From Proteinivorax hydrogeniformans (GTDB lineage Bacteria; Bacillota; Proteinivoracia; Proteinivoracales; Proteinivoracaceae): a stretch of 64,000 bases of DNA. Shown piece after piece: positions 21,599 through 48,292 of the stretch (position 1 is its first letter; the number at the start of each line of letters is the position of its first letter). The stretch is taken from assembly GCF_040515995.1 (NCBI RefSeq), contig NZ_CP159485.1, forward strand, positions 2,232,001 through 2,296,000. The letters run 5' to 3'. A program made the position numbers and the translations under genes. The notes under the pieces were generated by a model. The model made no database searches and was not told where the DNA came from. It saw only the letters and a list, made by a program, of their open reading frames with translations.

Positions 21599-21952
21599 TT
21601 ATCGTTTTTCCAAATGCACTGGAACCCCAAACCCTTCGCTTTGTTTAAGCAAATCAGCAATGGCGTCACGCTCGGATCTCGAACTATAACTAACCATAAT
21701 CAGCCCTCGGTCCTGATGCTCAGGAAAAGGCTTACCTACTTTTACCCTAATACCATCACCTAATGCTTCTATCTCTTTAGCTAAATCTTGATGTTTGTCA
21801 AGCGCCTCATTGGCCTCAACTACCGTCGGCAGCTGGTCGTACGGCGGGTGAGTGTCCCTTGGTGCTGAAAACAGACCGTTTAGAGCCGCAGCTCCCACTA
21901 TCACCAGTAAGGCAGCAATGACACCGATAATGATTTTATAGGTTATTCTCAT
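21599..21952 (-). CDS. Small membrane-anchored protein of the lactococcin-972-type cassette
   Basis: 117 residues from ATG at 21952, with AGGAGG eight bases upstream; the longer frame to 22030 overlaps the ATPase gene. One N-terminal membrane helix (about 6-26) is followed by a soluble domain (VEANEALDKHQDLAKEIEAL, then RVKVGKPFPEHQDRGLIMVS). I recognise no family. It is the last gene of a GC-richer three-gene operon and shares its codon use, so it probably belongs to the export or immunity function. Confidence 0.6.
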   Translation of the reverse strand: MRITYKIIIGVIAALLVIVGAAALNGLFSAPRDTHPPYDQLPTVVEANEALDKHQDLAKEIEALGDGIRVKVGKPFPEHQDRGLIMVSYSSRSERDAIADLLKQSEGFGVPVHLEKR

Positions 21953-22001
21953 AAAGGTCCTCCTAGTTCTAACGTAATTGTTAGTCGACAGATGAGGTAA
22001 C

Positions 22002-22640
22002 TTAAGAACCGACCTCATGCCGAACTCCACAAGCGTTGATCATTTCAGAGTCATGGGTCGCCACAATAACTGTGCGGCCGCGCATCGCGAAGTCAGAGAA
22101 CAGTTCTATGACTTTTTTCCGGTTAGCTGCATCCAGTGAGGCAGTAGGCTCATCAATAAACAGAATGGACGCATCCTTATAAATGGCACGGGCCAGTGCC
22201 AGTCGCTGTTTTTCTCCCCCACTTAGATGACTGGCCAACTCATTTTCTCGACCCTGAAGACCCGTCTGTTCCAGTACCTCCACCAACCGCGCCTGGTTTC
22301 CAGTGACCCGTTTTCCTAGCAAACTTACTCCCATGGTAATATTGAAAGCAATGGACTCATCATCCATAATACCATAATCCTGAAGTATAAATGCCGCGTG
22401 ATCCCGCCAGAAATGACGTCGTGCCACAGTACTATACTTAGTTACATCGTCTCCGTCGATCAAAATGCGTCCCTGATCCACAGGGAGCAACAGCCCGAGA
22501 CAATGCAATAGTGTAGTCTTTCCGCATCCACTCGGGCCAACAAGAGCTGTCATCATACCAGGTTTACAACTTATTGTCTCACTCTCAAGCACGCGCCGCC
22601 CTCCAATTGATACTGACAAATCCTGGCCTTCAATCAACAT
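22002..22640 (-). CDS. ABC ATPase of the lactococcin-972 export type
   Basis: 212 residues, ATG behind GGAGGTGG. Walker A GPSGCGKTT (about 35-43), signature LSGGEKQRLALARA (about 139) and Walker B ASILFIDEPTASLD (about 158) are intact. The short LolD/MacB-like form matches the ATPases encoded with bacteriocin-associated 7TM proteins (the lactococcin 972 group). It lies 15 bases downstream of such a protein. GC content is clearly higher than in the flanking genes, which points to acquisition from another lineage. Confidence 0.8.
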   Translation of the reverse strand: MLIEGQDLSVSIGGRRVLESETISCKPGMMTALVGPSGCGKTTLLHCLGLLLPVDQGRILIDGDDVTKYSTVARRHFWRDHAAFILQDYGIMDDESIAFNITMGVSLLGKRVTGNQARLVEVLEQTGLQGRENELASHLSGGEKQRLALARAIYKDASILFIDEPTASLDAANRKKVIELFSDFAMRGRTVIVATHDSEMINACGVRHEVGS

Positions 22641-22655
22641 CTATACCACCTCCAA

Positions 22656-24659
22656 TTAAATTCGACGCTTACTGACGCCATTAAAACACCAACGTGTAGC
22701 AATTAGATGACTTAACGGCACAACAGTCAATCCAAACATTGCCGCTACTAGTATGGGGCCTAGTGAATAAGGCCTTTGAAACAAAATAACGACGCTTACC
22801 AGTACTACCCCTACAAGTATTTCCTTGGCTATACGCCTATGTAGAATTCGCAACCATGACTGACCTGCTAATCGCAACGGGAAGTCACGCTTAGCTTGTA
22901 GCAGTGCTGTAATTGATGCACTTATAGCCGCAGAGACAGTAAAGGCAACTCCTAACGCAACCAAAGCAAGGCTTCTCAACCACACAACGTACGCTGCAAA
23001 CTGTGCCTGGAGAAGTCCCTCTTCAGCAATGTAAACAACATTTAGTTTGCCACTGAATCCGCGCTCCCTTAGCGCTTGCTCAGAAAGATCGTGCTGCTCC
23101 AATAACTGCTGCGTAGCGGTCACATCGGTAAACACGATATTGCTAGTTGAGGCCATAGATGTCAAGTTGGAATCGTTATAGGTGTCATAAAGCGAGGGCA
23201 CAACGACAAACAAAACATCGTCGGCAAATAGAAGTCTATTGCCCCATCCTCCTTCTGCTACTGGAAGTCGCAACCCATCGGCTGGTTCCAAGTATTTAAA
23301 CTGTGTAAATAACTCCTCTGAAAGGCTTTCTCTAGACAATATTTCAACCGTTTCTAGAATTTTTTGATGCAGGTCTTCTGGTATGCTATTGGAAGGCACC
23401 GATGTTAAAGCAGGCTGTGGCGCTCCCTTTGTCGCCAGATCGAGCCAACGCTGGTTAACATAGGAGACAACAGAGTACTCTCCAAAATCTACACCCTCTC
23501 CAGTATCCACCCGTGTCCACATGCCTTGGGTGAATGTATAGGAGTGAGCGACCATATCAAGGGATTCAGCGTCCTTTACCATCTCGCCAATCTGTGGCTC
23601 AAGGGCAACCATCCCATCCTTACCATCAAGATCTCCCATTCCAAACTCTATAGCGACTTGGTCTGAAAGTTGTTGCCACTGAGCCATTTCAACAGCAACT
23701 GCTGAAGAAAATTTATACGCTGACCAGGCAGGTCCAGCCGTGGCTACCACCAATAGGAAGGTAACCGCCTTAATCACGATGGCTGCCGAACGAAGGCTTT
23801 TTATTGCCGGTTGTCTAGTGGAAAGCATAGTTACACTAGGCCACGCAGTGGCTGACATCACAAGGGCAGCAAGCAATGCTACAGCAATAATAGCAACTTG
23901 CAAGCTAACCAGGACCTTGAGAAAGGTGCCGACGTACACCCAGCCATGTAGCACCCCCACATAGACCGATGCAATCGAAGCGATAACCCCAGCCGAAATC
24001 AGCAGAGCACCCCCGAACCCAGTTAAATCTTGCATCTGAATCCACACAGTCGGGCAGCCGCCCAAAACCCGAAGGGCACGACCCCGTGCTTTTACAGACA
24101 GCCAAAACAGCGCAAGCGCTACGAGCAGTGCTAACACCGCAATAACGGCGGCAGCAAATCCTCTTTCATACACCACGAATTTAAGGCTGTCAAAAGTTGA
24201 CGCATCCCGGCGGTCAACCTTTACACCTACGCTTTTTAGCTCGTTCAGAGCGTCATCTAGGTGAGCTTTTTGCCTGGTCACTAGATAGGTTCCATCAGGA
24301 TAGGAGTTAGCAAGTCGCTCCTTACCGACGATCTTACTTACATCGTCACCACCGAACCAAGTAAATTGGGAGGGCAAATCTCCACCATCAAACGCTACAA
24401 AAAACTGCCCATCGCCGCCACTGTCAAGCTCTGGCGCGACCTTAACCAGCCCGAGATTCCAGCGGACATCAAGCTCCTCCAACATTGTAAATGCTTCAGT
24501 GATTGAAAAGTTCGACTCGCTAAAGTCGAGCCTAAAACTGCTCTCAACACCAATGGCCTGAGGAAAATCTCGATCGTAAAGGTCCGTAATAACTATCGCT
24601 AACAACGCAAGCAAAATAAACAATACGCCGGCAACAGCCACTATTATCCGTTTATACAA
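22656..24659 (-). CDS. Bacteriocin-associated integral membrane protein
   Basis: 667 residues, TTG start behind GGAGGGGG. One N-terminal helix, an extracytoplasmic domain, a block of about four helices (about 165-310), a second large extracytoplasmic domain (about 325-560) and three C-terminal helices. This layout and length match the bacteriocin-associated putative immunity proteins of the lactococcin 972 group, which work with the adjacent ATPase. The GC-rich codon use contrasts with its surroundings. No lactococcin-972-like precursor is present next to it; a 25-residue hydrophobic peptide gene lies directly upstream instead. Confidence 0.75.
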   Translation of the reverse strand: MYKRIIVAVAGVLFILLALLAIVITDLYDRDFPQAIGVESSFRLDFSESNFSITEAFTMLEELDVRWNLGLVKVAPELDSGGDGQFFVAFDGGDLPSQFTWFGGDDVSKIVGKERLANSYPDGTYLVTRQKAHLDDALNELKSVGVKVDRRDASTFDSLKFVVYERGFAAAVIAVLALLVALALFWLSVKARGRALRVLGGCPTVWIQMQDLTGFGGALLISAGVIASIASVYVGVLHGWVYVGTFLKVLVSLQVAIIAVALLAALVMSATAWPSVTMLSTRQPAIKSLRSAAIVIKAVTFLLVVATAGPAWSAYKFSSAVAVEMAQWQQLSDQVAIEFGMGDLDGKDGMVALEPQIGEMVKDAESLDMVAHSYTFTQGMWTRVDTGEGVDFGEYSVVSYVNQRWLDLATKGAPQPALTSVPSNSIPEDLHQKILETVEILSRESLSEELFTQFKYLEPADGLRLPVAEGGWGNRLLFADDVLFVVVPSLYDTYNDSNLTSMASTSNIVFTDVTATQQLLEQHDLSEQALRERGFSGKLNVVYIAEEGLLQAQFAAYVVWLRSLALVALGVAFTVSAAISASITALLQAKRDFPLRLAGQSWLRILHRRIAKEILVGVVLVSVVILFQRPYSLGPILVAAMFGLTVVPLSHLIATRWCFNGVSKRRI

Positions 24660-24715
24660 TAACGCCCCCTCCTTCCAAAACTATCTATAATTTAGCCGGG
24701 CTCCGGCAACTGCAA

Positions 24716-24793
24716 TCATCCACTCTGTAAAGCAAAAGTTAGAGTAGATAATGTCAAAAGAAGGACACTTGATAATAATAATATTTTCCTCAT
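24716..24793 (-). CDS. Short hydrophobic peptide, candidate signal precursor
   Basis: 25 residues: MRKILLLSSVLLLTLSTL followed by TFALQSG. It has a strong GGGGGGAG site before the ATG, a basic start and a hydrophobic core, like a signal peptide with only a few residues after it. It lies 56 bases upstream of the 7TM/ABC operon and is divergent from the HTH-TPR regulator gene at 24890. Related peptides lie in the same position beside the regulators at 31430 and 38422. The layout resembles rgg-shp pairs. It could instead be a truncated bacteriocin precursor. Confidence 0.5.
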   Translation of the reverse strand: MRKILLLSSVLLLTLSTLTFALQSG

Positions 24794-24889
24794 AAAATCT
24801 CCCCCCTTCATTATCTTCTAATCTTATAATATAATAATATTATGAATAATCAACCCGATTGGAGTCGGGGTTCATAGGGGGGCGACTTT

Positions 24890-25825
24890 TTGACTTATAA
24901 TTTGAAAGGGTTTGGAGAAAAGCTTAGTTCCATTAGAAAAAAATTAAACTATACACAAAACTATATTTCTAGAGAGTTGGGTATTCACCCTGATACATTA
25001 CGAAAAATAGAAGGTGGTAAGGTTATACCTAAAATCGAAACTTTAGATAACCTTTCTTCTGTTTTAAAAGCTGATATAACAGCTTTATTTCTAGAATACA
25101 GAATAGATGATTACTCTTATTTTAATGATGTTAAAGGAAGTCTTGAAGCTAAGTTAGATAGATTTGATTACCAAAGCTTAAGTAGCGAGATTAAGATGCT
25201 AAACAAGCTATCAGCTGTAATAAAAAATCCATACTACAAAAAATTAATTAAACAACTAACTCTCTTTGCTACAGCTATCCCCTTTCTGAAAAGCAAGATT
25301 TAAAAGCAGCACAAGACAAGTTAATTGAAGCTTTAAAGTTAACAACTCCTAAATTTAAATTAAGTAGCCATACTAAATTTGCGTACTCTTTAATGGAAGT
25401 TATGATTTTGATGAACATTGCTTTTGTTAGAAATGATTTGGGTTATAAGGATGAATATTTAAGCTTAATGGAATTTTGCCTAACACAGGTGGAACAAAGA
25501 GATAATCTTCACCCTATAATCTGTCATAATTTAGCCACCTCATATTATAGAAACAAGATGTATAAAGAAGCGCTAAAGTATGGTCAGTTAGGTATAGAAG
25601 CTTATAAAAAAAGCCGCGTATTTAACCAAATGCACAGCCTATACTATATGAGCTGAATACAGATTAGAGAATAACGAGTACATAAGATCTATTAAAATGG
25701 CAATCTATTTGTGCGAGGCTTATGGTTTACATGATGTTAAAAAAATGTTGATTTCCAAGTGTAATAAGTTCTTAGATTCTAAGCATGATTTTGAAAAAGA
25801 TTGTTTGTATCATATTGATGAATAA
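24890..25825 (+). pseudogene. HTH-TPR regulator (RNPP/Rgg-like), frameshifted
   Basis: TTG start at 24890 behind GGGGGG. The first 125 residues contain an XRE-type helix-turn-helix (LNYTQNYISRELGIHPDTLR, then KIEGGKVIPK). The frame breaks near 25285, resumes in another frame (DLKAAQDKLIEALKLTT to HSLYYM) and breaks again near 25654, before ENNEYIRSIKMAIYLCEAYG and the stop at 25825. Joined, it aligns over its whole length with the intact 312-residue paralogue at 38422-39360, including the TPR-like C-terminal domain. It is divergent from the peptide gene at 24716-24793. Confidence 0.85.
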
Positions 25826-27170: not shown

Positions 27171-28385
27171 ATGATGCAAGGTCAGCAGATGATAGTTGGT
27201 GTAGACGTAGGTTATTACAATCATCATGTAGCTATAGGCTTAGCAGGAGATATTTTAAAGGATTTTGAGATACCCCATAGCCAGAAAGGGTTTAGGTATT
27301 TCTTTAATCAAATAACATCTTTTGTACAAGCTTATGAAGTATCAGACATAGTTGTTGGTATGGAGGGGACTAATGGCCATGCTCGGCCATTAGATCAAAT
27401 GGTTAAAGATAAAGGGTACATGTTACTAAATGTTAATAACCTAAAGTTTGCCCGTTTTAAAGAAATCTTCGCTACACCAGAGAAAAATGACCGCATGGAT
27501 GCAAGACAAATAGTCACCCTTATGATGATGGCCCCAATGATGGAACAAGGCAAGGAAGTGCTTCAAGAAGTGCATAACACATCTGAGATTGAAACTAAAT
27601 TAAAACGTATTAGTCGCCGTCGCCATCAGATAGTTAAAGAAAAAGTTATAATACAAAATAGAATGCAAGCAGATCTGCAATCTGTATGCCCAGGTTTTTT
27701 GAAAATGTTTGCATCTGTGGATGCCTTTTATGTACTGCGCTTTTTGAGCTGTCGTCCGGACTTGCGTAAGTTAAAAAGACTTAGATTACCGACAATACTC
27801 AAGATTCAAGGTGTTGGTAAAGGACATGCTAAAAAGTTACAAAGGTGGCAAGAGGAAGCTAGCTTTGGCTCAGAAGTAGAGTGGGTAGGCCCTATGATAG
27901 CAGAAGATGCTTCGCGCTTATTAGCCCTTAAAGAAAGGTTAATTGAATTAGAAAAACAAATCAAATCATTAGTTAGGCAGTCAAGATTGGGCTCTCTTAT
28001 TCGAAGCATACCAGGCTTTGGCCCTATTTGTTCTGGAATAATAGCTGCAGAAATAGGTACAATTAGTAGGTTTGACTCTGAGGCTGGGTTAGCAATCTAC
28101 CTAGGTATGGCTCCTCTTGACAATAGTTCTGGCCTATATGAAGGAACAAAATCACCTAAACAAGTTAACAAACATGCGAAAAAAGCTATGATGCAAGCAC
28201 TGCAGCATCATGTGCGAAGGGTTGATGAATCTAAAGTTTACTTCCAAAAAAAATGTGATGAAGGCAAGAAATACAATCAAGCTCTGCGGTCCTTAGGACG
28301 GCATTTAACAAGAGTAATATGGAGTATGATCAAAAACAATAGAAAATATGAACGTCGTGAAAAAGAAACAAGTAAAGCTGCGTAA
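27171..28385 (+). CDS. IS110-family DEDD recombinase, copy 1
   Basis: 404 residues, ATG behind AGGAGGGAG. The N-terminal RuvC-like DEDD domain starts VGVDVGYYNHHVAIGLAGD (first Asp about residue 10), continues with VVGMEGTNGH (Glu about 64) and EKNDRMDARQIV (Asp pair about 103-106). The C-terminal Tnp2 (transposase_20) domain contains IRSIPGFGPICSGIIAAEIG and AIYLGMAPLDNSSGLYEGT, with the catalytic serine expected in the latter segment. It is full length and identical in translation to the other two copies, so it is probably active with its bridge RNA. Confidence 0.95.
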   Translation: MMQGQQMIVGVDVGYYNHHVAIGLAGDILKDFEIPHSQKGFRYFFNQITSFVQAYEVSDIVVGMEGTNGHARPLDQMVKDKGYMLLNVNNLKFARFKEIFATPEKNDRMDARQIVTLMMMAPMMEQGKEVLQEVHNTSEIETKLKRISRRRHQIVKEKVIIQNRMQADLQSVCPGFLKMFASVDAFYVLRFLSCRPDLRKLKRLRLPTILKIQGVGKGHAKKLQRWQEEASFGSEVEWVGPMIAEDASRLLALKERLIELEKQIKSLVRQSRLGSLIRSIPGFGPICSGIIAAEIGTISRFDSEAGLAIYLGMAPLDNSSGLYEGTKSPKQVNKHAKKAMMQALQHHVRRVDESKVYFQKKCDEGKKYNQALRSLGRHLTRVIWSMIKNNRKYERREKETSKAA

Positions 28386-28502: not shown

Positions 28503-29573
28503 TCAGGCTTTTGATATTTCAATACTCCTTAGCTATCTGCTGCGACACCTCTCTCATTAACATTTTCACTGAGTCTGATACATCCCCTTTCCCTCTTTTA
28601 ACATTAGATATTACAGGTGAGGAAATCCCTAGCCTATTACTAATTTCAATGTTTGTTACAGTACTATATCTGGTGCTTAATAATATAATTGCTTTTCTAG
28701 CATCTACATAGCTTTGCTGTTTTGTTTTTTGGGCCAGTTCTTTTTTGCTAATGTCAACTTTCTCACAAACCATATCTATAATTCTATCTATATCAACCTC
28801 ATTATCATCTGCGCTAGCAGCTACTTCTTGTTCAAACTCCTGTAGCATTAAATAAATTTCTTTTTCGTCAATTAAATATTCTTCAATCTTTAACGGTCCT
28901 TCATCCAAGTCCATAAACCTTTTATATTCTTTCAATCCTCTATTTATTTTGTTGCCACCTAAAATCTCAAGAATAAAAAGGACATCTACTATGGAAGCTT
29001 TATTTAGTTTCAGATAATCCCTATGGCTGCTCCACTTATAGTTAAAACCTTCCTTAAGGTTAGCCTTAACAGGGTTATAGTGGATATATTTAATTAATTG
29101 TAGAAGATACGAGTCTCTGTCACATAGTAGCGCTTTATAACGCTGCTGAAAAACGTGACCTGTGCGATTATACCTTTTATTAAACCATTGGGTATAGCTT
29201 TGCTGAATACCTTGCATGATTTTTGATAATCGAGTATTGCCTGTTTCGATTAACATATGAGCGTGATTATCCATTATGCAATAAGCATACAGGTTAAAGC
29301 TATATCGCTTTTTATACTTGCTAATCAACGCAATATAATAAGACTTATCTACATCCTTACTAAAGATGGTTTCCCCATTGTTGCCCCTACACATAACATG
29401 GTAGAGTGCACCAGGATATTCTACTCTAGGTTTTCTTGCCATAAGATCACCCTTAACTCTTAATATAGTGTTATGTGAATGTTTCGACAGTTGTTTGGAA
29501 ATTCCTTTTTTTATTAACAAAACCCACCCTAAAATTAAGGTGGGTTAGGAGTATTGAAATATCAAAAGCCTGA
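28503..29573 (-). mobile_element. RAYT element with perfect 27-bp terminal inverted repeats
   Basis: The unit between IS110 copies 1 and 2 starts TCAGGCTTTTGATATTTCAA (28503) and ends with its exact complement at 29573; the match extends over 27 bases. Inside are one RAYT gene and, beyond its start, the AACCCACC...GGTGGGTT hairpin (29521-29546). The stop codon of the gene lies inside the repeat. Perfect terminal repeats are unusual for HUH/Y1 elements, which normally use hairpin ends. Truncated relatives occur at 18130, 21385, 31593, 32567 and 36100. Confidence 0.8.
28519..29442 (-). CDS. REP-associated tyrosine transposase (RAYT, Y1/HUH)
   Basis: 307 residues from ATG at 29442, preceded by AAGGGTGAT; the longer frame to 29520 crosses the leader hairpin. 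The Y1 domain begins RVEYPGALYHVMCRGNNGE, has the HUH motif in YCIMDNHAHMLIET (His-Ala-His) and the catalytic tyrosine region YLLQLIKYIHYNPVKA. The C-terminal part adds a DnaA-domain-IV-like helix-turn-helix (STVTNIEISNRLGISSPVIS). Such proteins cut single-stranded repeat hairpins. All expected catalytic residues are present. Confidence 0.92.
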   Translation of the reverse strand: MARKPRVEYPGALYHVMCRGNNGETIFSKDVDKSYYIALISKYKKRYSFNLYAYCIMDNHAHMLIETGNTRLSKIMQGIQQSYTQWFNKRYNRTGHVFQQRYKALLCDRDSYLLQLIKYIHYNPVKANLKEGFNYKWSSHRDYLKLNKASIVDVLFILEILGGNKINRGLKEYKRFMDLDEGPLKIEEYLIDEKEIYLMLQEFEQEVAASADDNEVDIDRIIDMVCEKVDISKKELAQKTKQQSYVDARKAIILLSTRYSTVTNIEISNRLGISSPVISNVKRGKGDVSDSVKMLMREVSQQIAKEY

Positions 29574-29690: not shown

Positions 29691-30905
29691 TTACGCAGCT
29701 TTACTTGTTTCTTTTTCACGACGTTCATATTTTCTATTGTTTTTGATCATACTCCATATTACTCTTGTTAAATGCCGTCCTAAGGACCGCAGAGCTTGAT
29801 TGTATTTCTTGCCTTCATCACATTTTTTTTGGAAGTAAACTTTAGATTCATCAACCCTTCGCACATGATGCTGCAGTGCTTGCATCATAGCTTTTTTCGC
29901 ATGTTTGTTAACTTGTTTAGGTGATTTTGTTCCTTCATATAGGCCAGAACTATTGTCAAGAGGAGCCATACCTAGGTAGATTGCTAACCCAGCCTCAGAG
30001 TCAAACCTACTAATTGTACCTATTTCTGCAGCTATTATTCCAGAACAAATAGGGCCAAAGCCTGGTATGCTTCGAATAAGAGAGCCCAATCTTGACTGCC
30101 TAACTAATGATTTGATTTGTTTTTCTAATTCAATTAACCTTTCTTTAAGGGCTAATAAGCGCGAAGCATCTTCTGCTATCATAGGGCCTACCCACTCTAC
30201 TTCTGAGCCAAAGCTAGCTTCCTCTTGCCACCTTTGTAACTTTTTAGCATGTCCTTTACCAACACCTTGAATCTTGAGTATTGTCGGTAATCTAAGTCTT
30301 TTTAACTTACGCAAGTCCGGACGACAGCTCAAAAAGCGCAGTACATAAAAGGCATCCACAGATGCAAACATTTTCAAAAAACCTGGGCATACAGATTGCA
30401 GATCTGCTTGCATTCTATTTTGTATTATAACTTTTTCTTTAACTATCTGATGGCGACGGCGACTAATACGTTTTAATTTAGTTTCAATCTCAGATGTGTT
30501 ATGCACTTCTTGAAGCACTTCCTTGCCTTGTTCCATCATTGGGGCCATCATCATAAGGGTGACTATTTGTCTTGCATCCATGCGGTCATTTTTCTCTGGT
30601 GTAGCGAAGATTTCTTTAAAACGGGCAAACTTTAGGTTATTAACATTTAGTAACATGTACCCTTTATCTTTAACCATTTGATCTAATGGCCGAGCATGGC
30701 CATTAGTCCCCTCCATACCAACAACTATGTCTGATACTTCATAAGCTTGTACAAAAGATGTTATTTGATTAAAGAAATACCTAAACCCTTTCTGGCTATG
30801 GGGTATCTCAAAATCCTTTAAAATATCTCCTGCTAAGCCTATAGCTACATGATGATTGTAATAACCTACGTCTACACCAACTATCATCTGCTGACCTTGC
30901 ATCAT
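29691..30905 (-). CDS. IS110-family DEDD recombinase, copy 2
   Basis: 404 residues, identical in translation to copies 1 and 3, with the same AGGAGGGAG site and the full DEDD and Tnp2 domains. Its orientation is opposite to copy 1. No damage is seen, so it could supply recombinase to all three copies. Confidence 0.95.
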   Translation of the reverse strand: MMQGQQMIVGVDVGYYNHHVAIGLAGDILKDFEIPHSQKGFRYFFNQITSFVQAYEVSDIVVGMEGTNGHARPLDQMVKDKGYMLLNVNNLKFARFKEIFATPEKNDRMDARQIVTLMMMAPMMEQGKEVLQEVHNTSEIETKLKRISRRRHQIVKEKVIIQNRMQADLQSVCPGFLKMFASVDAFYVLRFLSCRPDLRKLKRLRLPTILKIQGVGKGHAKKLQRWQEEASFGSEVEWVGPMIAEDASRLLALKERLIELEKQIKSLVRQSRLGSLIRSIPGFGPICSGIIAAEIGTISRFDSEAGLAIYLGMAPLDNSSGLYEGTKSPKQVNKHAKKAMMQALQHHVRRVDESKVYFQKKCDEGKKYNQALRSLGRHLTRVIWSMIKNNRKYERREKETSKAA

Positions 30906-32940: not shown

Positions 32941-34155
32941 TTACGCAGCTTTACTTGTTTCTTTTTCACGACGTTCATATTTTCTATTGTTTTTGATCAT
33001 ACTCCATATTACTCTTGTTAAATGCCGTCCTAAGGACCGCAGAGCTTGATTGTATTTCTTGCCTTCATCACATTTTTTTTGGAAGTAAACTTTAGATTCA
33101 TCAACCCTTCGCACATGATGCTGCAGTGCTTGCATCATAGCTTTTTTCGCATGTTTGTTAACTTGTTTAGGTGATTTTGTTCCTTCATATAGGCCAGAAC
33201 TATTGTCAAGAGGAGCCATACCTAGGTAGATTGCTAACCCAGCCTCAGAGTCAAACCTACTAATTGTACCTATTTCTGCAGCTATTATTCCAGAACAAAT
33301 AGGGCCAAAGCCTGGTATGCTTCGAATAAGAGAGCCCAATCTTGACTGCCTAACTAATGATTTGATTTGTTTTTCTAATTCAATTAACCTTTCTTTAAGG
33401 GCTAATAAGCGCGAAGCATCTTCTGCTATCATAGGGCCTACCCACTCTACTTCTGAGCCAAAGCTAGCTTCCTCTTGCCACCTTTGTAACTTTTTAGCAT
33501 GTCCTTTACCAACACCTTGAATCTTGAGTATTGTCGGTAATCTAAGTCTTTTTAACTTACGCAAGTCCGGACGACAGCTCAAAAAGCGCAGTACATAAAA
33601 GGCATCCACAGATGCAAACATTTTCAAAAAACCTGGGCATACAGATTGCAGATCTGCTTGCATTCTATTTTGTATTATAACTTTTTCTTTAACTATCTGA
33701 TGGCGACGGCGACTAATACGTTTTAATTTAGTTTCAATCTCAGATGTGTTATGCACTTCTTGAAGCACTTCCTTGCCTTGTTCCATCATTGGGGCCATCA
33801 TCATAAGGGTGACTATTTGTCTTGCATCCATGCGGTCATTTTTCTCTGGTGTAGCGAAGATTTCTTTAAAACGGGCAAACTTTAGGTTATTAACATTTAG
33901 TAACATGTACCCTTTATCTTTAACCATTTGATCTAATGGCCGAGCATGGCCATTAGTCCCCTCCATACCAACAACTATGTCTGATACTTCATAAGCTTGT
34001 ACAAAAGATGTTATTTGATTAAAGAAATACCTAAACCCTTTCTGGCTATGGGGTATCTCAAAATCCTTTAAAATATCTCCTGCTAAGCCTATAGCTACAT
34101 GATGATTGTAATAACCTACGTCTACACCAACTATCATCTGCTGACCTTGCATCAT
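32941..34155 (-). CDS. IS110-family DEDD recombinase, copy 3
   Basis: 404 residues with translation identical to copies 1 and 2 and intact DEDD and Tnp2 domains. It has the same ribosome site and upstream bridge-RNA region. Three intact, near-identical copies in 8 kb indicate recent transposition or local duplication. Confidence 0.95.
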   Translation of the reverse strand: MMQGQQMIVGVDVGYYNHHVAIGLAGDILKDFEIPHSQKGFRYFFNQITSFVQAYEVSDIVVGMEGTNGHARPLDQMVKDKGYMLLNVNNLKFARFKEIFATPEKNDRMDARQIVTLMMMAPMMEQGKEVLQEVHNTSEIETKLKRISRRRHQIVKEKVIIQNRMQADLQSVCPGFLKMFASVDAFYVLRFLSCRPDLRKLKRLRLPTILKIQGVGKGHAKKLQRWQEEASFGSEVEWVGPMIAEDASRLLALKERLIELEKQIKSLVRQSRLGSLIRSIPGFGPICSGIIAAEIGTISRFDSEAGLAIYLGMAPLDNSSGLYEGTKSPKQVNKHAKKAMMQALQHHVRRVDESKVYFQKKCDEGKKYNQALRSLGRHLTRVIWSMIKNNRKYERREKETSKAA

Positions 34156-36413: not shown

Positions 36414-38135
36414 TCAACTAGCTTCGCTACCTTCCTTGTTTTTTTCTTCGTAGCCCATAATATTACACAAGCTGTAAAATAGCTTTTTGTTTTTCATTAA
36501 CTCATAGTAATCTCCCTGTTCTACCAGTTCCCCTTCATCTAATACAAAAATTTCATCATATAACTTCAGTAACTCTTTATTCAGCCGGTGAGTTATTACA
36601 ATAGATGTTATATCATCCATTGCTAGGATCTGCTTTTCTATATTGCTAGCTATTTTATTATCAAGAGCTGAAGTAGCTTCATCTAATATAAGTATGGGCG
36701 TACCCTTAATCAGAGCCCTGGCTATAGATAACCTTTGTTTTTCTCCTCCAGATAGATTCGCACCATTTTCTCCCACTTGATACGACAATCCATTGGGTAG
36801 CTTTTTAACCATTTCATTCAATCCTGATTGAGCTAGGACATTTTTTAGGGAGTTTTCGTCAAAGTCTTTATACAATGTGATATTATTTTTTACAGTGTCA
36901 TCAAACATAAAAACATTTTGCTGAATCACTGACATAAAAGAATACAAATCTTCAGCAGATATTTGTCTAACATCTCGTCCATCAACTTTTATTTCTCCAT
37001 CGTAATCTTCAAAGTAACCTAGCAAAAGCTTTATTAAAGTACTTTTGCCACTTCCACTTCCTCCCACAATAGCATACTTTTTCCCTTTTTCTATGCTGAG
37101 ACTTATGTTATTTACAACTTTTTTTTCCGGTCCATATGAAAATGATACGTCTTTTAATTGAATGCTTTCAGCAAAATCTGATTTAGGTATGAATTCTTTT
37201 GTGTTCCCATTTTGTTCCATAGCTTTTTTAAATTTTTCTTCGATGGATTTAACAGATTGTATTCTATTATATACAGATGGTATTTGACCAACTGGCGTTG
37301 TAATGTTATTCATAAGCTGGACTGCAGCAATCAGTAATCCAAAAGTTAAATCTCCTATTATCACAAAGTATGTTCCCACAGAAAGTGCTGTTAAAAAAAT
37401 AAGGAATCCAAACGCAGCCCCTAGTATGTCAACTAAGTGGCTTAACTTTAGAAAAGAAAACTTACTTTCTTCTACATTTTCGTTACTCTTTTTATATTCG
37501 TCACTTAGTTTGTCCTCTATATGGAAACTTTTAATTACTTCAAAACCAGCAAATAAGTCTTTGACTTTCATCGTAAAATCACTCAAAAATTTTGAATGTG
37601 CCATTCTTCTGTTTTTTACACCTTTAGAAAATAACGTCGGCACAGCCAAGGTAGCTACTCCTAACACATATATACTCAAAGCAATATATGGGTTTATGTA
37701 AAAAATAGCAATGGAGCCTAACACTAAACGTGATACGTGCATAATCATTTCTAAGTTGGCGCTAAAGTAGTCTTTTTCAACTATGTTTATATCGTTAGTT
37801 AAAACTGAAATGTAATTGGCACTGTTCATGGCTTGAAAAGAGCGAATATCCTTTTTTAAAATCCCGGAAAAAATATCTCTTTTTAGATTTAAGACTGATT
37901 TTTTAATTAGACTAGCCTGTAATATTTTAACTATGTAATTAGTGGCAAAAAGAATTACAACAAAAAACAAGCCATATATAACCGCGCCATAAAAATCTTG
38001 CAAGCTCCCTTTATCCCCAGTATCTATTATTTGTTGTATCATAAAGGCAATTCTTATCTCTAAAAAAGCAGCTAAAAATATAAACCCTACAGTAGCTAAA
38101 AATAGCTTCAAGTCTCCTATGATATATTTTTTCAC
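36414..38135 (-). CDS. ABC transporter, fused permease/ATPase (peptide-exporter-like)
   Basis: 573 residues from GTG at 38135, behind GAAGGTG; the longer frame to 38198 has no site. Six membrane helices (about 10-300) are followed by an ATPase domain: Walker A GGSGSGKST (about 361), signature LSGGEKQRLSIARA (about 464) and Walker B TPILILDEATSALD (about 484). This is the half-transporter layout of lipid, drug and peptide exporters. No peptidase C39 domain is present. A 19-residue peptide gene lies 110 bases upstream on the same strand, then a divergent HTH-TPR regulator, suggesting the peptide may be exported. Confidence 0.85.
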   Translation of the reverse strand: MKKYIIGDLKLFLATVGFIFLAAFLEIRIAFMIQQIIDTGDKGSLQDFYGAVIYGLFFVVILFATNYIVKILQASLIKKSVLNLKRDIFSGILKKDIRSFQAMNSANYISVLTNDINIVEKDYFSANLEMIMHVSRLVLGSIAIFYINPYIALSIYVLGVATLAVPTLFSKGVKNRRMAHSKFLSDFTMKVKDLFAGFEVIKSFHIEDKLSDEYKKSNENVEESKFSFLKLSHLVDILGAAFGFLIFLTALSVGTYFVIIGDLTFGLLIAAVQLMNNITTPVGQIPSVYNRIQSVKSIEEKFKKAMEQNGNTKEFIPKSDFAESIQLKDVSFSYGPEKKVVNNISLSIEKGKKYAIVGGSGSGKSTLIKLLLGYFEDYDGEIKVDGRDVRQISAEDLYSFMSVIQQNVFMFDDTVKNNITLYKDFDENSLKNVLAQSGLNEMVKKLPNGLSYQVGENGANLSGGEKQRLSIARALIKGTPILILDEATSALDNKIASNIEKQILAMDDITSIVITHRLNKELLKLYDEIFVLDEGELVEQGDYYELMKNKKLFYSLCNIMGYEEKNKEGSEAS

Positions 38136-38245
38136 ACAAACACCTTCTTTCTTTATTTTAAAGATCGGTAATAAAGTTTTGGAAATTAAATATCGCAATG
38201 CTTGCCTTTTCAGCTATATATAATTCTAATGCGTTGTGGCTGTAA

Positions 38246-38305
38246 CTAAATCGTTGTTGTCAAGAGCTTAAACAATAAGACGACTAAAAGTAAACGCCTT
38301 TTCAC
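38246..38305 (-). CDS. Short hydrophobic peptide, candidate signal precursor
   Basis: 19 residues from GTG: MKRRLLLVVLLFKLLTTTI. The site GAGAGGGG lies six bases upstream. The basic start and leucine-rich core resemble the 25-residue peptide at 24716. It lies between the divergent regulator gene at 38422 and the ABC gene. An alternative frame past the stop (ALDNNDLVTATTH) would be reached only by frameshifting. It is short enough that chance cannot be excluded. Confidence 0.4.
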   Translation of the reverse strand: MKRRLLLVVLLFKLLTTTI

Positions 38306-38421
38306 CTTATTCCCCTCTCATTAGTACTATAATCAAATATTACATTATTTTCTGAATGTTAACAAGGGACATTGAAGTCCCTTGACATTGTGTTATAATT
38401 ATGCTATCGGGAGTGATGAAA

Positions 38422-39360
38422 ATGAAATATAATCTTGATTGCTTTGGTCAATATTTAAGAGAGTTACGGGGTAAGTTAAGGCTTTCTCAAAGTGACGTTT
38501 ATGATTTTTCTGGTGTAAGTGAAAAAACTTTGCGCAGGATTGAGGCCGGTAAGGTAATTCCAAAGTTTGAAACTTTGGAAGCTTTATCTTCTATCTACAA
38601 AGAGGATTTAAACCTTTTATTACTAAAGTATAGAGATGAAGCTTATTCACTTTTTTTAGATGTCCAGGGTAATCTAGAAAGAAAGCTTAATGAAGATGAC
38701 ATCGTTAATTTGAATAAGAATCTAAAAGAATTAAGCTATTTATCAAAAACAATGCAAAATGATTATTATGTTCTCCAAGCTAGACAGTTAATTTTGCTAA
38801 CTGAAGCAGTTATATTTTATAAGCTCGATAAAAAATTCAGTGAAGCATACTATAAACTGTTAGATGCTATAAAACTGACTACCTCAGATTTTAACTTAGA
38901 GAACTATGCAGATTTTCCATACTCGTCTATGGAAGTTAGGATCTTAATGAATATTGCTTTTATTTTAAATAAGCTTGGTGATAAGGAAAAGTATATAGAA
39001 ATTATGGAGTTTATATTTGATTACATAGAAAGTAGCGACAGTATTTACCCAAAGGTATGTCATAATTTAGGAGTAGCTTACAAAAGAGCAAAGAAGTATA
39101 GAAAAGCTATTAAATTTGCTGAGCTAGGAATTCAGCATTGTAAAAGAAACCAGCAATTTAACGGATTACCTATACTTTATTATGGAAAAGGAGTAGCTGA
39201 ATTTGATTTACAGGATAATGAATATATTCGATCTATTAAAAAGGCAATCTATCTATGCGAAGCCTGCGGCAATAAAAAATTAAAAAGCTTTATACTATCC
39301 AAATGTAAAAACTCGTTAAAGACCCCATATGATTTTGAAGCAGTTTGTCTTGATGATTGA
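38422..39360 (+). CDS. HTH-TPR regulator, RNPP/Rgg-like (intact copy)
   Basis: 312 residues from ATG at 38422, eight bases after GGGAG; this start matches the paralogue at 24890. An XRE helix-turn-helix occupies residues 1-65 (LRLSQSDVYDFSGVSEKTLR, then RIEAGKVIPK). The remaining 245 residues are helical repeats (NIAFILNKLGDKEKYIEIME, HNLGVAYKRAKKYRKAIKFA), the TPR-type domain that binds signal peptides in RNPP regulators. It is divergent from the short peptide gene at 38246. A promoter lies in the 116 bases between them (TTGACA...TATAAT around 38385). Its ligand is unknown. Confidence 0.85.
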   Translation: MKYNLDCFGQYLRELRGKLRLSQSDVYDFSGVSEKTLRRIEAGKVIPKFETLEALSSIYKEDLNLLLLKYRDEAYSLFLDVQGNLERKLNEDDIVNLNKNLKELSYLSKTMQNDYYVLQARQLILLTEAVIFYKLDKKFSEAYYKLLDAIKLTTSDFNLENYADFPYSSMEVRILMNIAFILNKLGDKEKYIEIMEFIFDYIESSDSIYPKVCHNLGVAYKRAKKYRKAIKFAELGIQHCKRNQQFNGLPILYYGKGVAEFDLQDNEYIRSIKKAIYLCEACGNKKLKSFILSKCKNSLKTPYDFEAVCLDD

Positions 39361-41778: not shown

Positions 41779-41912
41779 GGCCAGGCTGCTCAAAAGTGCC
41801 CAGATTCTAGGCGCGAAACTGCCCCAACACCGGAGCGTATGAACTAATACGTGAGGATGTTGGGGCAGTTTCAGCAACAACGAAGATGGGTGCTTTTGAG
41901 CTGTCTGGGCTA
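41779..41912. repeat. Long nested palindrome next to queF
   Basis: GAAACTGCCCCAACA (41815-41829) pairs with TGTTGGGGCAGTTTC (41858-41872). Outside it, GCTCAAAAGTGCCCA (41788) pairs with TGGGTGCTTTTGAGC (41887), and CCAGGCTG with the TGTCTGGGC region. The result is a cruciform-like unit of about 130 bases, GC-richer than its surroundings, reaching into the last codons of queF. It looks like an intergenic repeat found in low-GC anaerobes, but no second copy lies in this window. Confidence 0.6.
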
Positions 41913-42416
41913 GCGGTTGTCTATTTTCTCTGGGTAAAGATCATGCTCCATCATTCTCTTTTCTGCCATTTTTTCAAACTTGGTACCTTTTTTGCCATAG
42001 TTGCAGTAGGGGTCTATGCTTATTCCCCCTCTTGGGGTGAATTTGCCCCATACTTCTATGTATTTTGGGTCCATTAGTTTGATTAGGTCTTTCATTATTA
42101 TGTTCATGGAGTCTTCATGGAAGTCGCCGTGGTTTCTGAAGCTAAATAGGTATAGCTTTAGCGACTTGCTTTCCACCATGTGTTTGTCGGGGATGTAGCT
42201 TATATATACTGTACCAAAGTCCGGTTGGTTTGTTTTGGGACATAGGGTGGTAAACTCTGGGCAGTTAAATTTTACGAAATAGTCGTTTTCCATATGTTTG
42301 TTTTCAAAGGTTTCTAGCACCTCTGGGGTGTAGTTAAACTGGTATTTATTGTTTTGGTTTCCTAGTAGAGTTACTCCTTCTAGTTCTTCGTCTTTTCTTC
42401 CTTTTTTAGATTCCAT
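41910..42416 (-). CDS. queF: NADPH-dependent 7-cyano-7-deazaguanine reductase
   Basis: 168 residues of the short, unimodular QueF type. [20 protein letters not shown] contains the nucleophile Cys (in TTLCPKT), followed by [14 protein letters not shown] with the conserved Asp. [16 protein letters not shown] is the substrate-binding segment with conserved Glu/His. It reduces preQ0 to preQ1, the last soluble step before insertion into tRNA. It is the last gene of the operon and its ATG follows the queC stop directly. Confidence 0.95.
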
Positions 42417-43076
42417 TTATTTTGCCTCCTCTTTTTTTTGTAGGTATTTTTCTAGTCCTTGGGCTCTTAGCTCACATGCTGGACATGTTTTACAGCCTGT
42501 GCCTATGATTCCGTTGTAGCAGGTTAGGGTTTTTTCTCTGACGTAGTCTAACTTACCTAGCTTGTCTGCTAGCTGCCAGGCATCTGCTTTGTCCATCCAC
42601 ATAAGGGGCGTGTGAATTACGTATGGGTAGTCCATGGATAGATTTAGAGTTACGCCTAGAGATTTGATAAATACATCTCTACAGTCGGGGTATCCGCTAA
42701 AGTCTGTTTGGCAAACACCGGTTACTATGTGCCGGGCCCCTTTTTGCTTTGCCAGCACCGCTGCAAAGGTTAAAAATAGCATGTTTCTGCCATCTACGGC
42801 GGTGGAAGGCAGATCTCCTTCTTTTTCCTCCACATCTATGTCATCTCTTGTTAGTGCGTTGGGAGCTAGTTGATTTAACAGAGACATATCTAGTATGTGA
42901 TGTTCTATTTTTTGCTCTTTGGCAATTTCTGCGGCACATTCTAGCTCCTTTTTGTGCCGCTGATTGTAGTCAAAGGATACGGCAATTACTTCGTCAAATT
43001 TTTCCATTGCCCAAAAAAGGCAGGTGGTGGAGTCTTGTCCGCCGCTAAATACTACTACGCACTTTTCTTTTTCCAT
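42417..43076 (-). CDS. queC: 7-cyano-7-deazaguanine synthase
   Basis: 219 residues. The PP-loop [17 protein letters not shown] (about 7-23) binds [22 protein letters not shown] (about 186-204) holds the four zinc-binding cysteines. The enzyme converts 7-carboxy-7-deazaguanine to preQ0 using ATP and ammonia. Start at ATG 43076; the gene begins 11 bases after the folE stop at 43088. Confidence 0.95.
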
Positions 43077-43087
43077 TTTTATTCCCC

Positions 43088-43681
43088 CTATTTTACTAGT
43101 AACAAAAATTCGTTTCTTAGCTCGTTATCTTCCTCGAATTTTCCTTTGAAGGTGCTGGTTTTTGTAAGTGCACCGCCTTTTTTGATTCCACGGCTGGTCA
43201 TACAGCTGTGCTCTCCTTCGATCACCACCGCCACATCATCGGTATTTGCCACCATGGCCATAACTTCGGCGATGTCTCTTCCTATCCGTTCTTGCAGCTG
43301 AAGTCTTTTGGCTACCATCTCCGCTATCCGTGCGATTTTGCTAAGCCCGATGATTTTTTTGTTTGGGATATATCCAACTGCCACCTTCATGTTGTACATA
43401 AGCGCCAGGTGATGCTCACAGAAGCTAAAGATTGGGATGTCTTGTACCACCACCATGTTTTTGCTTTTGTTGACGGTATATCCGGTTTCTTCTTCAAAGG
43501 TTTTGTCAAACATCTCCGCAACTTCTTCGTTGGAGTAGCGCATTCCTTCAAAGACTTCCTTATACATGTTAGCCACCCGCTTGGGAGTCTCTGCTAACCC
43601 CTCTCTGTCAGGGTTATCTCCTAGTGCAATTAGGATTTGCCGTATATTTTTTTCTATTTTTTCTGTGTCTATAGACTTCAT
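43088..43681 (-). CDS. folE: GTP cyclohydrolase I
   Basis: 197 residues from ATG at 43681 behind GAGGTG; the longer frame to 43711 overlaps queE and lacks a site. [16 protein letters not shown] (about 99-114) holds the zinc-binding Cys and His, HSCMTSRGI (about 168) the second Cys. [18 protein letters not shown] is the conserved substrate loop. It makes 7,8-dihydroneopterin triphosphate, here probably the first step to queuosine, as its position inside the que operon suggests, and possibly also folate. Confidence 0.95.
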
Positions 43682-43683
43682 TT

Positions 43684-44370
43684 TTATACACCTCTCATGT
43701 CGGGAGACCAAATTATCTTGTGAAGCTGCAGCTGCAGTTTTATCTTATTTAATTTATGCTTTTTCATAAAATCCACTATTTCGGTAGGTTCTATCTTGCC
43801 TATCACTGGGCTGAAATAGACAAGGCATTTTTCTGTAAGGCTATACTCATTTATGATGTTATAGGCAGTTTTTAAGTCTTCATCGCTGCCTATAACAAAC
43901 TTATAAACGTCTTCTTTTCCAACTGCTTTTAGATTGCTTTTGTCCATGTGCTGCTCCATCTTACTTAAAGGAAGTTTGTAGTCTAATATAAATCTTACGT
44001 TTTGCCCACAGTTTTCCCTTATTAGTTTGTCTTTAAACCTGTCAATTGAAACGCTGCCGTTGGTCTCTATTTGAATTTTTAGCTGCTGCTTTTGAGAAAG
44101 GAAAACTAACACCTTGTCTATATCTTTTTGGATTAACGGCTCGCCGCCGGTTATTGTAACGTTTTCGGTACCGTTTTGTGCGATAAAATCATATATTTCT
44201 TCTGCTGTCATTTGCTCTCCATATACATTTTCGCCGGTGGAGTAGTCTGTGTCACACCAAGTGCATTTTAAGTTACAGCGGCCAAATCTAATGAATGTGG
44301 AAATCTCTCCGGCGGTCGGCCCTTCTCCGTCGATGCTGCAAAACTTTTCTATTATATTATATTTAGTCAT
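43684..44370 (-). CDS. queE: 7-carboxy-7-deazaguanine synthase (radical SAM)
   Basis: 228 residues from ATG at 44370, which overlaps the queD stop by eight bases; the longer frame to 44436 lies inside que[21 protein letters not shown] is the typical start, and [14 protein letters not shown] has the CxxxCxxC cluster motif. GGEPL (about 77) is the SAM-binding GGE motif. It converts 6-carboxytetrahydropterin to the 7-deazapurine core. Confidence 0.95.
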
Positions 44371-44800
44371 TGTCGGCCTCTGTATAGATGCAGCTATTGG
44401 TGGGGGTTTCAAAAAGCTCCACCTCGTGGACATCAAAGCCCTTGTCTTTTAGCATGTGGTATATATGCCGAGACATCTCTTCTGCTGTTGGGCGATAGGG
44501 AACTGTTAATATCTCAAATGGTTGCGGGCTGTTTTTCATCCGCTTTATAAAGTCTTGGCCAATCTCATCGTCTTCTATGATTAGCTTGTGGTCAAAGTAA
44601 TCTTCTATTTCTTTGAGGGCTTTTTTTATGGTGCCAAAGTCCTCCACCATACCCCGAAGCTGCCCTTCTTTTTTTACGTCTTCTCCCTTTACCTTAGCGA
44701 TAAGCCTGTATCTATGGCCGTGGATGTTGGAGCATTTGCCTTCATAGTTGCTAAGATAATGGGCTAGGTCAAACTGAACTTCTGCTTTTAATATAAACAT
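44363..44800 (-). CDS. queD: 6-carboxy-5,6,7,8-tetrahydropterin synthase
   Basis: 145 residues. AEVQFDLAHYLSNYEGKCSN and IHGHRYRL give the zinc-binding histidines and the catalytic Cys. EDFGTIKKALKEIEDYFDHK carries the conserved Asp and His, and PTAEEMSRHIYHML with VEVELFETPTNSCIY follows. It turns dihydroneopterin triphosphate into 6-carboxytetrahydropterin. It is the first gene of the operon, with AGGAGGC as ribosome site, downstream of a riboswitch. Confidence 0.95.
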   Translation of the reverse strand: MFILKAEVQFDLAHYLSNYEGKCSNIHGHRYRLIAKVKGEDVKKEGQLRGMVEDFGTIKKALKEIEDYFDHKLIIEDDEIGQDFIKRMKNSPQPFEILTVPYRPTAEEMSRHIYHMLKDKGFDVHEVELFETPTNSCIYTEADND

Positions 44801-47038: not shown

Positions 47039-48292
47039 ATGTTTGTGTCTAATTATAATATTCCGGTTATAGACGTACCTGAGGGATTAAAGGATTTAAT
47101 TACCGATGGTTATAACTTCATCAAAAATAATACAGAGCAGCATCGTTGTGATATCTTAGAGCTTAATTTTATGGGGCAAAAGGTTGTTTGCTTAAGTGGT
47201 GAGGAAGGCGCTAGGCTTTTTTATGATTCCGAAAGATTTCAACGCTACGGGGCCGTCCCCATGCGTGTACAAAAAACCTTATTTGGTGTAAATGCCGTTC
47301 ACACTATGGATGGACAAGGACACATCCATCGTAAACAACTTTTTTTATCATTGATGAGAAAAAAGGAGAAGAAAGTTGCTCAGTTAGTCATGAAAAATTG
47401 GGAATCTCGCATTGATAGGTGGGCAACTTCTAAAAACGTTGTTTTGTTTGATGAAGCAAAAGATGTACTGTGCAGCGCTGCTTGTCAATGGGCTGGCATT
47501 GAGCTCCCTGAAAGTGAAGTAAAAAAAAGGGCTGATGAGCTTATTGCCATGGTAGATGCTTTAGGTGGGTTGGGGCCTAGATATTATGTAGGTAAATTGG
47601 CACGTATTAAGACAGAAAAGTGGTTAGGTGGAATAATTGACGATGTTAGAAATGGACGATTAAAACCCGAAGAGAACACTGCACTTTTTAAGATTGCTTT
47701 TTTTAAAGAGTTAGATGGTAAAGAGCTAAGCAGCCAGATGGCTGCTGTGGAGCTTTTAAATATTATTAGACCGATGGTTGCTATTTCGTTACTGGTTACC
47801 TTTACCGCCTTAGCAATACATAAGCACCCAGAACATAAAGAAAAGCTACTGTTAGACAGCAGCTTTCGCGAAATGTTTGTACAAGAGGTGCGAAGATATT
47901 ATCCCTTTGTCCCAGTGCTCGGTGCTAGGTCCCGTAAGGGATTTACCTGGAAGGGATGTGAGTTTAAGGAAAAAATGTTAGTAATTCTAGATGTTTATGG
48001 GATTAATCACGACCCTAGAATTTGGGATGACCCAGATAAGTTTAACCCTAGACGCTTTGAAGACTTTGATAGCAGCTTATACAATTTTATTCCACAAGGA
48101 GGGGGTGACCCCACCAAAACTCATCGCTGCCCGGCAGAACCGATAACCATAGAAGTACTAAAAAACACGCTTGATTTTCTAGCAAACAAGATAACTTACG
48201 ATGTTCCCGACCAAAATTTGAGCTACAGTTTAAAGAGAGCTCCTTCTTTACCACAAAGTGGATTTATCATAAGCAATGTAAAATGGAGATAG
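47039..48292 (+). CDS. Cytochrome P450, CYP152-like fatty acid peroxygenase
   Basis: 417 residues, the usual length of this family. ATG at 47039 follows AAAGGGTAGG. The heme loop is FIPQGGGDPTKTHRCPAEPI (about 352-371), the GGGD-HRCP-E form that marks CYP152, with the ligand Cys in HRCP. ILNIIRPMVAISLLV (about 240) carries the Arg-Pro pair that in CYP152 enzymes binds the fatty acid carboxylate. These enzymes use H2O2 for fatty acid hydroxylation or decarboxylation and need no reductase. None is encoded nearby. It ends exactly against the stop of rtcB. Confidence 0.88.
   Translation: MFVSNYNIPVIDVPEGLKDLITDGYNFIKNNTEQHRCDILELNFMGQKVVCLSGEEGARLFYDSERFQRYGAVPMRVQKTLFGVNAVHTMDGQGHIHRKQLFLSLMRKKEKKVAQLVMKNWESRIDRWATSKNVVLFDEAKDVLCSAACQWAGIELPESEVKKRADELIAMVDALGGLGPRYYVGKLARIKTEKWLGGIIDDVRNGRLKPEENTALFKIAFFKELDGKELSSQMAAVELLNIIRPMVAISLLVTFTALAIHKHPEHKEKLLLDSSFREMFVQEVRRYYPFVPVLGARSRKGFTWKGCEFKEKMLVILDVYGINHDPRIWDDPDKFNPRRFEDFDSSLYNFIPQGGGDPTKTHRCPAEPITIEVLKNTLDFLANKITYDVPDQNLSYSLKRAPSLPQSGFIISNVKWR

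What the first reader, a model, noticed from the sequence alone, without database searches (positions are those of the whole stretch)
21599..24793. GC-richer lactococcin-972-type cassette without a bacteriocin gene
Seen: the 7TM protein, ABC ATPase and small membrane protein have much higher GC and different codon use from their neighbours. The position where a precursor is expected holds only a low-GC 25-codon peptide. Known: such cassettes normally carry a secreted precursor of about 100 residues. Inference: horizontally acquired immunity or export module, kept without its toxin or reused for the peptide.
Basis: partly seen in the sequence, partly recalled or inferred. Interest (0 to 1): 0.55.

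Follow-up and report, generated by a model that had tools for sequence, protein, structure and literature searches.

The report
Bacteriocin immunity cassette without its toxin
A foreign-looking set of three genes that probably protects the cell against a family of antibacterial proteins has been kept without the matching toxin gene, and in this genome it has been joined to the damaged start of an unrelated peptide-signalling operon.

Summary
Three genes (window 21599-24659, minus strand) have 47-49% GC against a mean of 35.6%, and codon use outside all 44 other large ORFs. Relatives are patchy in Bacillota (14 of 397 and 5 of 398 genomes); some sit beside true lactococcin-972 precursors. No PF09683 precursor was found in this genome or its sister species (the same search found 6 of 20). 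So the cassette is horizontally acquired and toxin-less, and dN/dS of 0.09-0.19 between the two species shows it is maintained. The "7TM" protein models as a BceB/YbbP-like type VII ABC permease, which favours immunity by target protection over export. In 11 of 13 genomes of the close subfamily no precursor was found; 7 of the 13 cassettes follow a two-component system. The 25-codon peptide is not cargo. It is the truncated leader of a ~43-residue secreted peptide, intact in the sister beside a ComR-like regulator and a thiazole/oxazole-peptide operon. Cassette and leader meet within 24717-24725; the window's regulator is a pseudogene. Verdict: new variant of a known kind, with a captured promoter.

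The parts
22656..24659 (-). '7TM' permease, 667 aa (TTG start): TM1, outer domain, TM2-4, TM5, large outer domain, TM6-8 in the model; BceB/YbbP-like type VII ABC permease
   Evidence: orthologs at 82% (sister), 72% (L056), 59-69% (other close relatives)
22002..22640 (-). ABC ATPase, 212 aa, best NCBIfam model TIGR03608 (lactococcin 972 group), below cut-off
   Evidence: dN/dS 0.09 against sister
21599..21952 (-). small protein, 117 aa: N-terminal hydrophobic anchor plus a confidently folded outer domain; third gene of this subfamily
   Evidence: no PDB match with E <= 0.001
24716..24793 (-). 25-codon ORF: truncated leader of a ~43-residue secreted peptide; its stop codon lies at the junction
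24717..24725 (.). junction: homology to the sister's cassette ends at 24716, homology to the sister's regulator/peptide locus ends at 24726
24826..24872 (-). captured promoter: imperfect palindrome 24852-24872, 20 nt spacer, TATTAT at 24826-24831
   Evidence: sequence read (placed by eye; the script picked an AT-rich repeat instead)
24890..25825 (+). XRE-TPR regulator pseudogene (two frame lesions, near 25.27-25.29 kb and 25.65 kb); intact ortholog in L078
21407..21595 (.). dispersed repeat (IS200-like family) directly downstream of the cassette
   Evidence: transposase Y1_Tnp at 28519-29520

Best explanation
The cassette is a lactococcin-972-type immunity module: a type VII ABC permease, its ATPase and a small anchored outer-face protein. 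It entered the ancestor of this genus from another Bacillota lineage and has been kept by selection without any toxin. Most likely it protects the cell against lactococcin-972-like proteins made by others (or a similar lipid II-cycle antimicrobial): ATP-driven movement of the permease pulls the toxin off its membrane target, as proposed for BceAB. In the window genome a rearrangement joined it to the promoter and first codons of an unrelated peptide-signalling operon; of that operon's enzymes the one tested is not found, the peptide is cut after its leader and the divergent ComR-like regulator is a pseudogene. Shown: foreign composition, no precursor found, purifying selection, exact junction, truncation, pseudogene. 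Inferred: immunity function, target-protection mechanism, and that the captured promoter drives the cassette.
For: Composition and codon use. Patchy relatives: 2 of 13 genomes of the class, 14 of 397, 5 of 398 (two of them window and sister). Precursors passing PF09683 beside relatives L046, L050, L015, and over the cut-off in 6 of 20 genomes, none in window or sister. dN/dS 0.19, 0.09, 0.185. Fold: BceB Z 12.9 over 309 residues, YbbP Z 12.3 over 449. Junction and ortholog alignment. SagC/ThiF-like protein of the sister operon not found in the window genome. Literature: Lcn972 binds lipid II (PMC4055356, passages); a Bce-like transporter raises the Lcn972 concentration for 50% inhibition 5-fold (PMC7438565, passages); BceAB by target protection (PMC7038271, title, start of abstract, outline).
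Against: No function was tested; PMC11796350 (passages) says that the B and C proteins had not been verified in any lactococcin 972 locus. The permease matches TIGR01654 far below cut-off and has no PDB match by sequence with E < 0.1. The model is of medium confidence (pLDDT 76, pTM 0.62), and Z about 12-13 lies near what the tool warns can be a common helical arrangement. Only 4 of 16 inner branches of the tree are well supported. The small gene has a lower dS (0.27) than the others. In PMC7438565 the Lcn972 effect of the Bce-like transporter may be indirect, and Lcn972 did not induce it (passages).
Confidence: 0.66

Rival explanations
1. The cassette is a stand-alone antimicrobial-peptide resistance or sensing module (Bce-like), no longer tied to lactococcin-972 proteins, whose sensor input has been exchanged several times.
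For: In the close subfamily (13 genomes, 7TM at least 59% identical) 11 of 13 lack any PF09683 match at E <= 0.01 and 7 of 13 cassettes follow a response regulator and histidine kinase; L048 follows another response-regulator gene.
Against: L046, of the same subfamily, carries a precursor 0.85 kb upstream of the ABC gene. The window cassette has no two-component system next to it. The kinase was not shown to be BceS-like (best model PnpS, far below cut-off).
Confidence: 0.2
2. The ABC genes export the 25-residue peptide or another small peptide.
For: TIGR03608 is named 'putative bacteriocin export ABC transporter'; the peptide lies next to the permease gene.
Against: The peptide is a truncated leader and is absent beside the sister's cassette. 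The fold resembles type VII systems.
Confidence: 0.04
3. The cassette is a decaying relic.
For: Toxin absent, neighbouring regulator a pseudogene, peptide truncated.
Against: All three cassette reading frames are open in both species and dN/dS is 0.09-0.19.
Confidence: 0.07

Closest known systems
Lactococcin 972 / streptococcin B loci (scbABC of pneumococcus, PMC11796350; lcn972 of pBL1, PMC4055356; mediterrocin, PMC12345188)
   Same: Permease plus ABC ATPase; in the scb locus also a ComR-type regulator and, in S. pseudopneumoniae, a 19-residue peptide. 157 of 571 pneumococcal genomes keep only scbBC without the toxin (passages).
   Different: Third gene for a small anchored protein; sequence far from TIGR01654; no toxin found in window or sister; the regulator/peptide part is a damaged piece of a different operon, joined secondarily.
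BceAB and other type VII ABC systems (YsaDCB/TCS-G, YbbAP, MacB)
   Same: Predicted permease fold; seven relatives next to a two-component system; YsaDCB protects against Lcn972 and its operon also encodes a small secreted peptide (PMC7438565, passages).
   Different: Two outer domains in an 8-helix arrangement in the model; no detectable sequence similarity to solved members; linked to lactococcin-972 precursors in some relatives.
ComR/Rgg (RRNPP) peptide-signalling systems
   Same: HTH plus TPR regulator of about 310 residues, divergent short secreted peptide, palindrome about 20 nt before a TATAAT-like box; the HTH part matches ComR structures.
   Different: No Rgg, PlcR or ComR family model appeared in the scans of the regulators run here; peptides carry a (Y/I)EW(N/H/F) tail that I found described nowhere in what I read; the window copy is broken.

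Membership tests
Lactococcin 972-type bacteriocin locus | Secreted precursor of the PF09683/TIGR01653 family next to the cassette | tested here: not met
   none in the window genome or the sister; 6 of 20 genomes positive in the same search
Lactococcin 972-type bacteriocin locus | Permease over the TIGR01654 cut-off | tested here: not met
   18.1 bits against 189; two relatives beside true precursors (L015, L050) show no match at all at E <= 0.01
Lactococcin 972-type bacteriocin locus | ATPase over the TIGR03608 cut-off | tested here: not met
   best of all NCBIfam models, but 188 bits against 255
Lactococcin 972-type immunity cassette (as homology group) | Homology of permease and ATPase to cassettes that carry precursors | tested here: met
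   69% to L046, 35-36% to L050-L053, 24% to L015 with E 1e-20
Type VII ABC systems (BceAB, YbbAP, MacB, FtsEX) | Permease fold with an outer domain between TM1 and TM2 | tested here: met
   model of medium confidence; top hits BceB, YbbP, HrtB, FtsX, LolC/E, MacB
BceAB-TCS detoxification modules | Adjacent two-component system | tested here: not met
   no two-component genes matched beside the window cassette; 7 of 13 close-subfamily cassettes have one
BceAB-TCS detoxification modules | Raises resistance to lipid II-cycle antibiotics | not testable with these tools
   needs an assay
RRNPP quorum sensing | Receptor with TPR (and HTH), 250-500 aa, directly adjacent secreted propeptide (criteria read in PMC10075063, passages) | tested here: met
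   for the regulator family; the window copy itself is a pseudogene with a truncated peptide
RRNPP quorum sensing | The peptide binds the receptor after re-import | not testable with these tools
   needs an assay

The most novel reading that the evidence does not exclude
The close subfamily is an unrecognised travelling resistance module: a toxin-less type VII ABC cassette of lactococcin-972 ancestry that repeatedly takes on new sensors (a two-component system in seven genomes, another response regulator in one, a ComR-like peptide promoter in the window genome). In the window genome it is part of a wider switch from signaller and producer to silent receiver: all four examined peptide genes of the ComR-like network are damaged where the sister's are intact, while three of the four receptors stay intact.
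Probability: 0.3. Interest if true: 0.65.

Novelty: new variant of a known kind. Interest (0 to 1): 0.5.

Why it matters
The role of the permease/ATPase pair of lactococcin-972 loci is still called unverified in the literature read here. A subfamily kept under selection without a toxin, often beside a two-component system, and with a BceB-like fold, points to protection rather than export and offers natural toxin-free test cases. The window adds a base-pair-resolved case in which such a cassette took over the promoter of a peptide-signalling operon, parallel to the toxin-less scbBC strains of pneumococcus.

Tried and rejected
Peptide as cargo or bacteriocin: rejected (truncated leader). Precursor elsewhere in the genome: searched with PF09683, not found; a precursor too divergent for that model cannot be excluded. 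A simple 12-kb deletion between the sister's peptide gene and cassette as the origin of the junction: the orientation fits, but the lipoprotein gene lies on the other side of the cassette in the window, so at least one further rearrangement is needed; the order of events is open. Plasmid and viral carriers: no 7TM match in 72,556 plasmid records at 1e-5; 64 pattern matches in viral contigs, none a relative. I first took the 63-aa ORF in L011 as a degraded precursor; Pfam gave nothing and it does not align with the secreted 135-aa protein of the sister locus, so this is dropped. The ~40-codon ORFs before the ABC gene in Bacillaceae looked like leader remnants; some lack a hydrophobic stretch (by eye), so they are left unexplained. 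An automatic palindrome search was dominated by AT-rich repeats: a GC-containing palindrome or its ortholog with a TATAAT-like box was picked in 5 of 14 regions, and in window and L078 I placed it by eye. Foldseek of the small protein gave nothing with E <= 0.001. Novelty: searches (listings, with passages or outline of six papers) showed no description of a toxin-less, two-component-linked lactococcin-972 cassette; most subscription papers are not held.

Full report
What is there. On the minus strand of the window, 24659 to 21599, lie a 667-aa permease gene, a 212-aa ABC ATPase gene and a gene for a 117-aa anchored protein. Their GC (47-49%), GC3 (41-45%) and codon use differ from 44 other large ORFs of the window; each has a worse codon score than any of the 44. 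Upstream of the permease gene is a 25-codon ORF, and divergent from it an XRE-TPR regulator gene that the tools read in three pieces with two frame lesions.

Where the cassette comes from. In the family of the window genome, 2 of 5 held genomes have the permease, both of one genus; in the class 2 of 13; in an even draw of the phylum 5 of 398 including those two; in the order of the Lederbergia relative 14 of 397. A scan of genome contigs gave five Bacillaceae orthologs at 58-64%. In the tree, window, sister and L056 (another family, cassette GC 58-63%) form a supported group (95/99); most deeper forks are open, 4 of 16 inner branches being starred. Cassette GC is 45-52% in several hosts whose loci have 36-44%, but 34-38% in L020. 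Taken together this is horizontal spread. The transfer predates the window/sister split: 85.3% DNA identity for the cassette against 85.8% for a linked lipoprotein gene, dS 0.52, 0.60 and 0.27 for the three genes against 0.50 (a CPBP gene of the region has dS 0.09, so rates vary).

Is there a toxin? PF09683 rings over its cut-off in 6 of 20 cassette-bearing genomes and in neither the window genome nor the sister. Five of the six hits lie beside the cassette (G283, G262, G366, G405, G307), one on another contig (G154). In the close subfamily of 13 genomes (window, sister, L056, L046, L048, L016-L020, L045, L047, L055) 11 have none; in two of these 11 (G716 of L056, G017 of L020) the DNA upstream of the cassette has an assembly gap or is missing, so absence is weaker there. 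The gene order permease-ATPase-small of window, sister and L056 equals that of L050-L053 minus their precursor; the other close relatives have ATPase-small-permease. Seven of the 13 have a response regulator and histidine kinase upstream, with a short ORF reaching into the ATPase start.

What it does. dN/dS of 0.19, 0.09 and 0.185 shows that the proteins are maintained in the absence of a toxin. The permease model (18 sequences, pLDDT 76, pTM 0.62) has eight long helices and two outer domains; its best structural matches are BceB (Z 12.9, rmsd 4.9, 309 residues) and YbbP (Z 12.3, rmsd 5.9, 449 residues), with HrtB, FtsX, LolC/E and MacB following. Such systems work on the outer face of the membrane (recalled, and the abstract listing). 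Lcn972 binds lipid II and its orf2-orf3 are called immunity genes (PMC4055356, passages); a Bce-like transporter raises Lcn972 resistance, though its authors suspect an indirect route for Lcn972 (PMC7438565, passages); BceAB is proposed to act by target protection (PMC7038271, title, start of abstract, outline). PMC12345188 (passages) says that the DUF1430 protein likely gives immunity and that mediterrocin has a Sec-dependent leader. I therefore favour immunity by target protection; this step is inference.

What the peptide is. The window genome and its sister hold a family of XRE-TPR regulators; the query matched in 8 of 13 genomes of the class (24 matches). I examined the divergent side of 14 loci; L006 was only read as sequence, and the remaining distant matches were not examined. 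Seven of the 14 encode a secreted peptide of 45-61 residues with a (Y/I)EW tail motif after acidic residues (L080, L081, L082, L084, L086, L087, and L012, which lacks its ATG), one (L086) with the motif twice; L078 has a related peptide without W, L079 another peptide, L083 and L085 none that I recognised, and win24, win38 and L011 are damaged. The window regulator aligns at 83% over 1147 columns with the intact regulator of L078, through the promoter and the peptide leader, and stops at window 24726; homology to the sister's cassette stops at 24716. So the 25-codon ORF is a truncated leader, and the promoter of a foreign operon lies in front of the cassette. In the sister the regulator faces an operon with SagC/ThiF-like, YcaO-like, SagB-like and ABC proteins (the YcaO and SagB names are my reading). 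The SagC/ThiF-like protein has no match in the window genome (which has no control of its own). Regulators of this family match TPR and XRE structures, among them ComR by the HTH part, and the palindrome-n18-20-TATAAT layout recalls the ComR box quoted in PMC11796350.

Pattern across the genome. For four ortholog pairs of peptide genes, the sister's are intact and the window genome's are damaged: tail lost at the cassette junction, a 2-nt deletion behind the leader, homology ending behind the leader, and a lost ATG (a non-standard start is possible). Three of the four regulators are intact, 84.5-92.1% identical to the sister's. This resembles receivers that no longer signal; four loci in one strain are few, and relaxed selection is an equal explanation.

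Comparison. The nearest known case is the pneumococcal scb locus: ComR-type regulator, short peptide in S. pseudopneumoniae, and toxin-less scbBC in 157 of 571 genomes (PMC11796350, passages). The window case shares the outcome but reached it by joining a cassette to another operon's promoter, has a third gene, and belongs to a subfamily in which the toxin-less state is the rule. By strict membership it is not a lactococcin 972 locus (no precursor; models below cut-off) but it belongs to the same homology group as cassettes that are.

Noticed in passing
window 36414-39360; G004 locus L087: A second regulator/peptide locus: intact regulator, peptide gene shortened by a 2-nt deletion relative to the sister, and an MsbA-like ABC gene where the sister has a different operon.
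   Followed up: partly
L080, L081, L082, L084, L086, L087, L012 (variant in L078): A family of secreted peptides of 45-61 residues with a C-terminal (Y/I)EW(N/H/F) motif, divergent from XRE-TPR regulators and next to radical SAM, ABC or other operons (the L078 variant, without W, faces a thiazole/oxazole operon); candidate undescribed RRNPP signals.
   Followed up: partly
window genome: L012, L011 and the two window loci: All four examined peptide genes of the network are damaged where the sister's orthologs are intact, while three of four regulators are intact.
   Followed up: partly
L016, L017, L018, L019, L045, L047, L055, directly upstream of the ABC gene: A roughly 30-40-codon low-GC ORF with a basic start reaches the ABC start codon; the frame of its tail varies between species.
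   Followed up: partly
window 27171-28385, 29691-30905, 32941-34155: Three copies of a 404-aa transposase with identical translations (IS110-like by my reading) within 7 kb.
   Followed up: no
window 28519-29520; repeats at 21407, 29432, 32682, 18128: IS200-like (Y1_Tnp) transposase with several copies of its flanking repeat; one copy adjoins the cassette's downstream end.
   Followed up: partly
window 47039-48292: A cytochrome P450 gene (PF00067).
   Followed up: no
window 41910-44800: preQ0/queuosine-type genes with GC3 of 42-50% but codon scores within the background range (the gene naming is my reading of the sequences).
   Followed up: no
L056 4216-4464 and 6233-9284: Second, partial copy of the small gene upstream of a complete cassette with GC 58-63%, across an assembly gap.
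   Followed up: no
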